Assembly (NCBI RefSeq): GCF_000337915.1
Contig: NZ_AOJE01000060.1
Span: 124,251 to 162,147 of the forward strand
Direction: 5' to 3'
Source of the DNA: Halorubrum saccharovorum DSM 1137
GTDB taxonomy: Archaea; Halobacteriota; Halobacteria; Halobacteriales; Haloferacaceae
Length of the DNA stretch: 37,897 nt
Shown: piece by piece, positions 1 to 37,897 of the stretch
Layout: every line of letters starts with the position of its first letter
Numbering within the stretch: the first letter of the stretch is position 1
The notes under the pieces: generated by a model
The model's database searches: none
Seen by the model: only the letters and a program-made list of their open reading frames with translations
Told to the model about the DNA's origin: nothing
Position numbers and translations under genes: made by a program

Positions 1-111
1 CCTCCCCAGCCTCGTCGCTCGGTCGGGGCTCCCGGCGGTCGCCCGCTCCCTCGCGACTCCCTCGCGCGTGCTCCTCGCGCCCTGCGGGCGCTCGGAGGCA
101 CGCGCCACCGC
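1..111 (-). repeat. Dispersed structured repeat, copy A (partial, runs off the window)
   Basis: Read on the minus strand, this begins GCGGTGGCGCGTGCC and ends GACGAGGCTGGGGAGG at base 1, so the rest of the element lies to the left of the window. It contains a stem-loop at 66-103: GCGTGC pairs with GCACGC outside and GCGCCC with GGGCGC inside, with GA opposite GA between the helices. It matches copy C (35783-36147) and copy B (16261-16522) almost base for base in the conserved islands, and differs in the spacer between the GTCGC and GCGAC arms. I see no convincing coding potential here. Function is unknown. Confidence 0.85.
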
Positions 112-16110: not shown

Positions 16111-16260
16111 CGGTGTCGGGTTGCGGACGCGCGGGGATACCCGTTTCGGGCCGTGACGAGGACGTACCCGTATGAATGAATCCGTCCGTTCTGAGCGCGA
16201 CCGTCGTCGAAGCCTCGGCCGCTCGGCAGTACGTGATCGTCATCTCGGCGATGACGACCT

Positions 16261-16375
16261 TCAAAGCCCCAGTCGCGACGACTCGCGTGGCTCGCCGCGC
16301 TCCTCAGTCGCTCGTTTCACTCGCTCCCTGCGGTGCTTGCGTCGCCAAGCGTCGTCCTCGCGACTGCCCCTTTGA
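16261..16375 (-). repeat. 3' module of copy B with terminal inverted repeat
   Basis: In element orientation the ends are TCAAAG-GGG-CAGTCGCG (16375-16359) and CGCGACTG-GGG-CTTTGA (16277-16261). The outer 6 and inner 8 bases pair perfectly, around opposed GGG runs. Copy C has the same outer CAAAG/CTTTG and the same GGG runs, but a different inner stem that is again self-complementary. Confidence 0.85.
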
Positions 16376-16475
16376 GTCCCACCCGACCGCACCGCCCCGC
16401 ACCTCACTCCTCCCCAGCCTCGCCGCTCGCTCGGGGCTCCCTCCGGTCGCCCACGTCGCTCGCGGCGTCCCTCGC

Positions 16476-16514
16476 GCGTGCTCCTCGCGGCCTGTCGGCC
16501 GCTCGGAGGCACGC
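16476..16514 (-). other. Stem-loop 1 of copy B
   Basis: The outer helix is GCGTGC/GCACGC and a three-pair TCC/GGA helix follows. GA lies opposite GA, and then comes the inner helix GCGGCC/GGCCGC closed by a four-base loop. Copies A (66-103) and C (35791-35828) have GCGCCC/GGGCGC in the inner helix, so two base pairs have changed on both sides. Confidence 0.85.
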
Positions 16515-16614
16515 GCCACTGCAGTCGATTACGTAGGCACTCGATCCAGACAACCCCAGGCGCGTTGTCGCCGGTTCCGACACGGGTTTGACCCGGGCGA
16601 GGTCACCCGTTGAC

Positions 16615-35119: not shown

Positions 35120-35776
35120 ATGGACGAGAAGACCTCCGATCTCCGCGACATCTTCGTCGAGACCACCGGGTCCGAGACGGTCACCGAGCGGCAGGCGGAG
35201 TCGCGCGGGACGCTCACCGACCGCGACGAGGCGGCGGTCGACGAGCGGGTCCGAGAGCTCGTCGCCGCGATGCGCGAGCGGTACGACTTCTCGACCGACC
35301 TCGACGACGCGACGTACGCTCGGATCGCCCGCGCGCGCTTCGAGGAAGACGACGACGAGGCGATCGCGTCCGCGCTCGTCGAGGAGCGCGAGGAGGGTGG
35401 AAATGGAGAGGAAACCCCGCCCGTCGTCGACCCCGCGGCCGTCCGCGACGCCCGGCTCGACCTCCACCTCGTCCGCGAGGTCGACCGCGACGTCGACGAC
35501 GCCTCGTTCGAGTACGACGACCTGAAGCAGCTGACCGCGGAGGGGCGCTCGATCCCCGAGTGCGCCGACGCCCTCGACGCCGACCCCGACGTCGTCGCGA
35601 AGCACGCCCGCGTCGCCCGTGTGGACCTGACTTCCACCCGCGCGAACGACCGGTTCCGCGACGAGTTCCGCGACCTCCTCACCGACGCCGAGATCGAGGG
35701 CTCGCACGCCGAGACCGCCCGCGACGACGGGCTCGAAGAGGCGACCGAAGACATGGAGACGGACGTCTCTTTATAA
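35120..35776 (+). CDS. Haloarchaeal conserved protein, possibly 'conditioned medium-induced protein 4'
   Basis: This 218-residue acidic, charged and mostly helical protein starts MDEKTSDLRDIFVETTGSE. I recall a haloarchaeal family named conditioned medium-induced protein 4 with a similar start; that name comes from growth-dependent expression, not a known activity. The middle (SFEYDDLKQLTAEGRSIPECADALDADPDVVAKHARVAR) reads like a helix-turn-helix. TTATTTACC (35089-35097) is about 27 nt upstream, giving a leaderless message. The stop codon is inside the TTATAAGCGA that precedes repeat copy C. Confidence 0.7.
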   Translation: MDEKTSDLRDIFVETTGSETVTERQAESRGTLTDRDEAAVDERVRELVAAMRERYDFSTDLDDATYARIARARFEEDDDEAIASALVEEREEGGNGEETPPVVDPAAVRDARLDLHLVREVDRDVDDASFEYDDLKQLTAEGRSIPECADALDADPDVVAKHARVARVDLTSTRANDRFRDEFRDLLTDAEIEGSHAETARDDGLEEATEDMETDVSL

Positions 35777-35780: not shown

Positions 35781-35790
35781 TTGCGGTGGC

Positions 35791-35828
35791 GCGTGCCGCC
35801 GAGCGCCCGCAGGGCGCGAGGTGCACGC
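35791..35828 (+). other. Stem-loop 1 of copy C
   Basis: The outer helix is GCGTGC/GCACGC, followed by GCC against GGT, which allows one G-U pair. GA lies opposite GA, and the inner helix GCGCCC/GGGCGC closes a three-base loop. The same shape occurs in copies A and B with compensated differences. Confidence 0.85.
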
Positions 35829-35985
35829 GCGAGGGAGTCGCTGGCGCCGCCGGCGCCAGCGACGAGGCTGGGGAGGCGTGAGGCTGCGGTCCCGCGAGCG
35901 GAGCGAGCGGGAGCACGGAAGTCGCAGCGCTGAGCGCAGCGAGGCGGTCGTCTTCCGGCGGTTGCTGTGCGGAATGGGTGGGGCT

Positions 35986-36147
35986 CAAAGGGGCAGCCGC
36001 GTCGACGAAGCACGACGACGTAAGCCGCGTGGCGCGTAGCGCCACGGGCAGCCGGCGGCAAAGCCGCCGGCGACACCGAAAGGAGCGAGTGAAACGAGCG
36101 ACTGAGGAGCGCAACGAGTCGCGCGAGTCGACGCAGCTGGGGCTTTG
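35986..36147 (+). repeat. 3' module of copy C with terminal inverted repeat
   Basis: The left arm is CAAAG-GGG-CAGCCGCGTCGAC (35986-36006) and the right arm GTCGACGCAGCTG-GGG-CTTTG (36127-36147). The outer five pairs and 12 of 13 inner pairs form, around opposed GGG runs. The inner arm sequence differs from copy B, yet pairs just as well. Inside are two extra hairpins and the 31-base block (36082-36112) shared with copy B. Confidence 0.85.
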
Positions 36148-36179
36148 GCGGTGTTCACCGTCGACCCTCCGTCGACTGC

Positions 36180-36189
36180 TTATAAGCGA
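36180..36189 (+). promoter_or_regulatory. TTATAAGCGA after repeat copy C (orphan TATA box)
   Basis: This repeats 35771-35780 exactly and continues GCGG, like the AGCGAGCG extension seen at the two promoters at 5425 and 6633. No gene on the plus strand follows before the convergent SRP54 gene. It may therefore mark an unannotated transcript or the far side of an insertion. Confidence 0.45.
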
Positions 36190-36270
36190 GCGGTTGGGGC
36201 GTTAGAAGCGTCCCTCGTTGATCCGCCGTCAGTAACGCCCGTTGATAAGTAACCACCCGCGATCGACGCT

Positions 36271-37782: not shown

Positions 37783-37897
37783 ACCCCACCCGCAACCGCA
37801 GCCTCAGACCTCCCCAGCCTCGTCGGTCGCCCTCCGCGTTGCTCCGGGCGACCGACTCCAGCGAGGGACCAGAGGTCCCTCTGGCAGCCGGCGCTAC
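37783..37897 (-). repeat. Dispersed structured repeat, copy D (5' module, diverged, runs off the window)
   Basis: On the minus strand it carries the island GACGAGGCTGGGGAGG followed by CTGAGGCTGCGG, as in copy C. Its stem-loop 2 has perfect 11-bp arms, GTCGGTCGCCC (37822-37832) and GGGCGACCGAC (37846-37856), of a sequence unrelated to that of copy C. An additional perfect hairpin, GAGGGACC/GGTCCCTC, is at 37863-37881. The 3' module is missing; the copy breaks off near the srp54 promoter. Confidence 0.75.

What the first reader, a model, noticed from the sequence alone, without database searches (positions are those of the whole stretch)
35783..36147. Unnamed dispersed non-coding element with conserved islands and variable hairpins
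Four copies (1-111, 16261-16522, 35783-36147, about 37783-37897) share islands such as GTGGCGCGTGCC, GAGGCTGGGGAGG, CTCAAAGGGGCAG, a 31-base block and CTGGGGCTTTG. Between the islands they differ in length and sequence, but the differing parts are hairpins in nearly every case. Copies sit in divergent, convergent and upstream gaps, so they are not tied to one gene. Four copies in 38 kb imply hundreds per genome if density holds (inference). Possible roles are a MITE-like mobile element without its own transposase, a structured RNA, or a chromosome-organising site. I know no published name.
Basis: partly seen in the sequence, partly recalled or inferred. Interest (0 to 1): 0.82.

Follow-up and report, generated by a model that had tools for sequence, protein, structure and literature searches.

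The report
Haloarchaeal hairpin mobile element family
The window carries copies of an apparently undescribed, gene-free repeat found in most haloarchaeal genera; it keeps an intricate folded hairpin shape while its sequence changes, and in two other genera it visibly jumped as a small passenger transposon.

Summary
Its core (here "B") is a ~135-nt hairpin: GGTGGGACTSAAAGGGGC, a long covarying stem, then GGGGCTTTS. It occurs in 51/52 Halorubrum genomes, 136/170 genomes of the family and 176/212 haloarchaeal genomes sampled (59/68 genera), with 42 hits in this genome. No Rfam match; I found no published description. In Halorubrum, B follows a second structured module ("A") and has a ~57-bp tail, often tandem. 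Other genera have A-B, B-A-B or head-to-head B-B forms. Covariation is very strong, tandem G.A pairs and a GGG-facing-GGG loop are nearly invariant, and G.T exceeds A.C 67:16, so one strand folds. Copies are intergenic, random in orientation to genes, and present or absent at the same site in close relatives. In two genera whole B-B units are MITEs with GG..CTGTT ends and perfect 8-bp target duplications (7/15; none expected), i.e. IS6-type. Halorubrum copies lack those ends and duplications, so their mobility is inferred. IS200/IS605-type mobilisation is unlikely: three heavily loaded genomes have no Y1 transposase. Best reading: a haloarchaea-wide family of non-autonomous mobile elements built on a conserved hairpin. 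What the hairpin does is unknown.

The parts
35770..35776 (+). TTTATAA box just 5' of the element; includes the stop codon of the upstream gene
   Evidence: sequence; TTATAA peaks at -15..-11 of the A start in 46 of 161 copies; relatives without the element end this gene CTATAG or TTGTGA
35783..35836 (+). module A, helix P1/P2 (GCGGTGGCGCGTGCC ... GCACGCGCGAGGGA), with a tandem G.A pair
   Evidence: alignment A2 and pair counts
35837..35863 (+). module A, hairpin P3 (variable stem, recurring alleles)
   Evidence: sequence across copies
35863..35883 (+). conserved island CGAGGCTGGGGAGGCGTGAGG
   Evidence: 94-100% conserved at most positions in 85 copies
35888..35961 (+). nested hairpin insertion (GGTCCCGCGAGCG ... 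GTCTTCCGGCGG), also in other copies
   Evidence: same block in L022, L025, L027, L028, L108
35977..36163 (+). module B: island GGTGGGGCTCAAAGGGGCAG, hairpin P4, CTGGGGCTTTGG; G-rich loop between CAAAG/CTTTG and CAG/CTG
   Evidence: CM R1 87.6 bits; covariation
36018..36075 (+). nested double-hairpin insertion inside P4
   Evidence: compare uninterrupted P4 in alignment A1
36137..36192 (+). tail unit CTGGGGCTTTGGCGGTGTTCACCG ... TTATAAGCGAGCG
   Evidence: unit repeated in tandem every ~54-60 bp in other copies; TTATAA at +40..44 in 79 of 206 tails
36193..36255 (+). degenerate second tail unit
   Evidence: sequence
16246..16522 (-). second copy: B at 16246-16383, A at 16400-16522
   Evidence: CM R1 144.2 bits; sequence
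1..111 (-). 5' (A) part of a copy continuing beyond the window
   Evidence: rest in L013/L068
37746..37897 (-). copy upstream of srp54 with most of B deleted and a nested double hairpin in A; cut by the window end

Best explanation
A haloarchaea-wide family of non-autonomous, MITE-like mobile elements built around a conserved hairpin module (B) that folds on one specific strand; in Halorubrum it appears as A-B plus a tail. SHOWN in two other genera: two B modules lie head to head inside a ~320-378-bp unit with terminal inverted repeats (GGTACTGTTYAGAT..) and 8-bp target duplications, so these units were inserted by transposition of IS6 type, presumably by an IS6-family transposase acting in trans (the enzyme is inferred). 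SHOWN: the folded shape is conserved across the class. INFERRED: Halorubrum copies spread by a similar passenger mechanism with different ends (TTATAA at fixed positions on both sides), and their stems turn over because copies exchange whole hairpin cassettes by ectopic gene conversion between conserved islands. INFERRED, least certain: the hairpin is kept because a host or element factor recognises the folded strand, as RNA or as single-stranded DNA.
For: Copy number from one hit to >=63 (the scoring cap) in one genus, 92 in one genome of another genus. Present in most of the class; in a scan of 84,980 species' genomes all listed hits but one are haloarchaeal. Also on haloarchaeal plasmids, almost always intergenic; no phage match. 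Site upstream of srp54: filled in several species, empty in a 98%-identical relative, with different stems at the same site. 99% identical copies at different loci in G256. TIRs, and perfect 8-bp duplications in 7 of 15 units against 0 when left and right flanks are mismatched. IS6-like ends next to 20/23 and 8/11 modules in G245 and G256, 0 in control windows. IS6 hallmarks (8-bp repeats, GG tips, cTGTt motif, MITEs known) from PMC7986276. Covariation and strand asymmetry.
Against: Halorubrum copies show no IS6-like ends (0 of 171) and no target duplication (46 copies share a flank 8-mer against a mean of 37.8 by chance), and no near-identical copies were seen in the own genome, so their mobility is inferred. 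No IS6 transposase with matching ends was located. Ordinary MITEs do not conserve internal structure across a class, so the element may do more than jump. Species sharing srp54 may exchange that region by recombination, so presence/absence alone does not prove transposition.
Confidence: 0.6

Rival explanations
1. A multi-copy family of functional structured RNAs: the + strand is transcribed and folds into A (P1-P3) and B (P4), with conserved purine-rich loops acting as a protein or ligand site; copies spread by hitchhiking.
For: Strand-specific pairing: G.T 67 vs A.C 16 in A4, 56 vs 29 in the two sequence-only alignments. Invariant tandem G.A pairs and GGG/GGG loop flanked by compensatory changes. 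B lies at the same place near an OB-fold (RPA-like) gene on nine plasmids of several haloarchaeal families.
Against: No orientation bias relative to neighbouring genes (64 vs 57); head-to-head pairs only 20-30 bp apart leave no room for two promoters; the TTATAA box of Halorubrum lies only 11-15 nt from the start, too close for a promoter of an intact A; no Rfam match; three Halorubrum genomes have one hit.
Confidence: 0.2
2. A single-stranded-DNA hairpin element of REP/BIME or PATE kind, moved by a Y1 HUH transposase (IS200/IS605 or RAYT).
For: Strand-specific hairpins, singlets and inverted pairs, intergenic, no ORF; PATEs exist in Haloquadratum (PMC3119063).
Against: Genomes with 92, 47 and >=63 hits have no Y1_Tnp gene; no element flanks such a gene beyond chance; 8-bp duplications in two genera are not a property of IS200/IS605.
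Confidence: 0.08
3. A chromosome-organising or protein-binding double-stranded DNA site.
For: Intergenic, both orientations, enriched in convergent gaps (73 against 36 divergent; baseline 170 to 153).
Against: Strand-specific pairing is not needed for a duplex site; copy number varies from one to >=63 within one genus; also found on plasmids.
Confidence: 0.07
4. Hairpins are mutational by-products (template-switch correction of quasi-palindromes plus cassette gene conversion), without selection on the fold.
For: Whole stems differ between 98%-identical relatives at one site, and the same P3 alleles recur at different sites; one orthologous copy has its G loop replaced by a perfect helix (L123).
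Against: Does not explain G.T over A.C asymmetry, nor conservation of non-Watson-Crick G.A pairs and GGG/GGG loops beside covarying pairs.
Confidence: 0.05

Closest known systems
IS6-family MITEs
   Same: In two genera: ends with GG tips and CTGTT motif, 8-bp target duplications, no ORF, ~320-378 bp
   Different: Interior is a pair of conserved, covarying hairpins shared by the whole class; Halorubrum copies lack IS6-like ends and duplications
PATEs (palindrome-associated transposable elements) of Haloquadratum
   Same: Transposase-free haloarchaeal elements with near-terminal palindromes, heterogeneous sequences, targets of nested repeats
   Different: PATEs share IS605-type ends and make no duplications; here 8-bp duplications occur in two genera and Y1 transposase is absent from loaded genomes
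REP/BIME elements with RAYT
   Same: Intergenic hairpins as singlets and inverted pairs, orientation-independent, many copies
   Different: B is about four times longer, with internal tandem G.A and GGG/GGG features; no Y1 (RAYT-type) gene in loaded genomes
HEARO / omega RNAs of IscB and TnpB elements
   Same: Structured non-coding parts of mobile elements, sometimes without an ORF
   Different: No Rfam match; no nuclease gene attached in the copies examined

Membership tests
IS6-family MITE | 8-bp direct target duplication | tested here: met
   7 of 15 units in G245/G256 perfect, 0 in mismatched control; not found in Halorubrum copies
IS6-family MITE | terminal inverted repeats with GG tip and cTGTt motif | tested here: met
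   GGTACTGTTYAGAT in G245/G256, about 10 of 106 modules elsewhere; 0 of 171 Halorubrum-type modules
IS6-family MITE (window copies) | IS6-like ends and 8-bp duplication in Halorubrum | tested here: not met
   the window copies are therefore not filed as IS6 MITEs
IS6-family MITE | an IS6 element with the same ends in the same genome | tested here: inconclusive
   no such element in the stretches held; whole genomes could not be searched further
PATE / IS200-IS605 | Y1 (TnpA) transposase to act in trans | tested here: not met
   no PF01797 in G245, G282, G004
PATE / IS200-IS605 | ends similar to IS605-type transposon ends | not tested
   ISfinder is not available here
REP/BIME | RAYT gene in the genome, flanked by copies | tested here: not met
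Known Rfam RNA family | match at gathering score | tested here: not met

The most novel reading that the evidence does not exclude
Module B is a new class of structured functional nucleic acid of haloarchaea (RNA or strand-specific ssDNA) with tandem sheared G.A pairs and four conserved G-tracts, possibly forming a G-quadruplex in the molar-K+ cytoplasm, that is recognised by an unknown factor and carried by several unrelated kinds of transposable unit.
Probability: 0.3. Interest if true: 0.88.

Novelty: new variant of a known kind. Interest (0 to 1): 0.72.

Why it matters
A repeat present in most haloarchaeal genera, at tens of copies in many genomes, appears to have gone undescribed, so current annotation misses it. 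It gives a clear case of a passenger transposable element whose internal fold, not its sequence or ends, is what persists, and so a direct way to ask why: the covariance models can annotate the family, and a target-duplication-bearing subset shows where it has moved. Stem turnover at orthologous sites also makes ectopic gene conversion in polyploid archaea testable.

Tried and rejected
Halorubrum-only distribution: suggested by the exact-pattern search but refuted by covariance models. GC-rich low complexity: rejected by taxon specificity and covariation. IS200/IS605 or RAYT: Y1 absent from loaded genomes. TTATAA as promoter: spacing wrong. TTATAA as target duplication in Halorubrum: nothing beyond TTATAA is repeated. 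Terminator or 3'-UTR element: no orientation bias. An autonomous version with an ORF between two B modules: the widest gap (L275, 840 bp) holds two small membrane-protein-like ORFs, no transposase. Locating the IS6 partner in plasmid stretches: not found. Literature: no paper prints the island or the TIR sequences in this context. Resemblance of GTGGGACTGAAA to haloarchaeal CRISPR repeat ends: noted from memory, no supporting context, dropped.

Full report
OBSERVATION. Copy 3 (35783, +) matches 99 stretches of its own genome, and the island CTCAAAGGGGCAG occurs 29 times exactly. Aligned across loci the element resolves into two modules. A is GCGGTGGCGCGYGCC-P1/P2-GCGCGAGGGA-P3-CGAGGCTGGGGAGGYGTGAGG. 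B is GGTGGGACTCAAAGGGGCAG-P4-CTGGGGCTTTGG. After B comes a tail of about 57 bp that is often tandemly repeated. Module A, the linker and P4 can each carry nested double-hairpin insertions, which account for part of the variable hairpins. Copy 4 has lost most of B and copies 1 and 4 are cut by the window ends.

STRUCTURE. On a sequence-only alignment of 53 B modules the highest mutual-information column pairs are mostly Watson-Crick pairs. The 31-pair structure is 96.9% paired, with 228 double-changed cells against 63.7 in shuffles (0 of 500), and every slid version collapses. The P1/P2 helix behaves likewise (104 against 35.3). A class-wide set of 105 matches gives 704 against 190; that alignment was fitted to the model, and part of its loci were chosen by the island pattern. 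Tandem G.A pairs are 92-100% kept at most sites, and a loop of GGG facing GGG is kept in 95 of 105 while the helix beside it changes between CAAAG/CTTTG, GAAAG/CTTTC, CGAAG/CTTCG and GGAAG/CTTCC. G.T pairs exceed A.C 67 to 16 (p=1e-8), and 56 to 29 in the two sequence-only alignments. A selected duplex or cruciform would be symmetric, so one strand, the one written here as +, is what folds. RNA folding of B gives the same long hairpin with z-scores of -3.1 to -4.3.

DISTRIBUTION. A named scan returned haloarchaea (Halorubrum, Halobaculum, Haloparvum, Haloarcula, Haladaptatus, Natrinema, Halorussus and others) and one Bacteroidales contig. Plasmids of 24 haloarchaeal records carry B, almost always outside annotated genes; phage records do not. 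Rfam has no match.

ARCHITECTURE ELSEWHERE. Other genera show A-B, B-A-B (L208, L216) and head-to-head B-B pairs with a spacer of 20-30 bp, whose outer ends read GGGGCTTTCGAGGTGTTC. On nine plasmids from several families B sits at the same place near a gene for an OB-fold, RPA-like protein, a possible sign of function but equally of shared plasmid ancestry.

MOBILITY. Among 250 distinct copies 9 overlap a called ORF. Tandem-gene gaps show no orientation bias (64 against 57); convergent gaps (73) outnumber divergent ones (36), against 170 to 153 for gene pairs in the same loci (crude gene calls). Upstream of srp54 the element is present in several Halorubrum species and absent in a relative whose srp54 end is 98% identical; where present, P2, P3 and P4 differ almost completely although the outer flanks are alike. 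Direct proof of transposition comes from two other genera. In G256, B-B units 99% identical sit at different loci inside ~377-bp units with ends GGTACTGTTTAGATTAG...CTTATCTAAACACTACT and duplications such as TCGAACCG and TCAGCGAC. In G245 the ends are GGTACTGTTCAG... with duplications CAACGATC, CGTCGCAG, AGCGAGAG and TCGCCGCG. Perfect 8-bp duplications occur in 7 of 15 units and never when flanks are mismatched. Eight-bp repeats, GG tips and a cTGTt motif are the published marks of the IS6 family, which has archaeal clades and known MITEs (PMC7986276). Such ends lie next to 20 of 23 (G245), 8 of 11 (G256) and 10 of 106 (other) modules, 0 in control windows for these groups, and next to 0 of 171 Halorubrum-type modules.

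WHAT REMAINS OPEN. Halorubrum copies instead show TTATAA at fixed positions on both sides without duplication beyond it. Their tail arrays decay outward, and P3 alleles recur between sites. I infer cassette exchange by ectopic gene conversion. The IS200/IS605 route is disfavoured because genomes with 92, 47 and at least 63 hits have no Y1_Tnp. Why the fold is kept is not known. The one-strand signal allows RNA or single-stranded DNA; the orientation data and head-to-head pairs argue against a cis-acting RNA. The four conserved G-tracts suggest, but do not show, a G-quadruplex.

VERDICT. A real, class-wide, apparently undescribed family. It works like a passenger transposable element (shown in two genera as IS6-type MITEs, inferred in Halorubrum) and is unusual in conserving an elaborate fold. 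The window copies themselves fail the two testable IS6 criteria and are not filed there.

Noticed in passing
window 35888-35961 and 36018-36075; L112, L115, L127, L140: Several recurring small double-hairpin blocks (about 50-80 bp, e.g. CCGGCGGC..GCCGCCGGCTGCCAGAGG..CCTCGCTG) are nested inside the element's hairpins; they look like an independent repeat family that targets it, like SMR-A elements in PATEs.
   Followed up: partly
L349-L353, L355-L358 (plasmids of Halobaculum, Haloplanus, DL31, Halomarina, Natribaculum, Haloprofundus, Halorientalis, Halobacterium DL1, Halorarius): A conserved non-coding stretch (CTTTAGCCCGGAA..GGAATGGTCGGTCGCGAGCGACGCGGAGGGCGG) lies between an OB-fold RPA-like gene and the B hairpin on plasmids of several families.
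   Followed up: partly
Halorubrum tails, e.g. L027, L063, L089, L140: Tail units of about 54-60 bp form tandem arrays; units in one array often share private variants, and distal units are more degenerate.
   Followed up: partly
window 35720-35776 and orthologous gaps L111-L127: Where the element is present the upstream gene ends in TTA TAA, with the rare Leu codon TTA and the stop inside the TTATAA box; relatives without the element use CTA TAG or TTG TGA.
   Followed up: no
L123 (G156, srp54 3' gap): One copy has its GGG-facing-GGG loop turned into a perfect CCCC/GGGG helix and P4 shortened, like a template-switch correction.
   Followed up: no
L207, L229 (G271); L379 (G005): B modules also sit inside units with related ends (TGTTTAGTTAGGAG.., TGTTCAGATAAG..), suggesting capture by several IS6-type MITEs.
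   Followed up: partly
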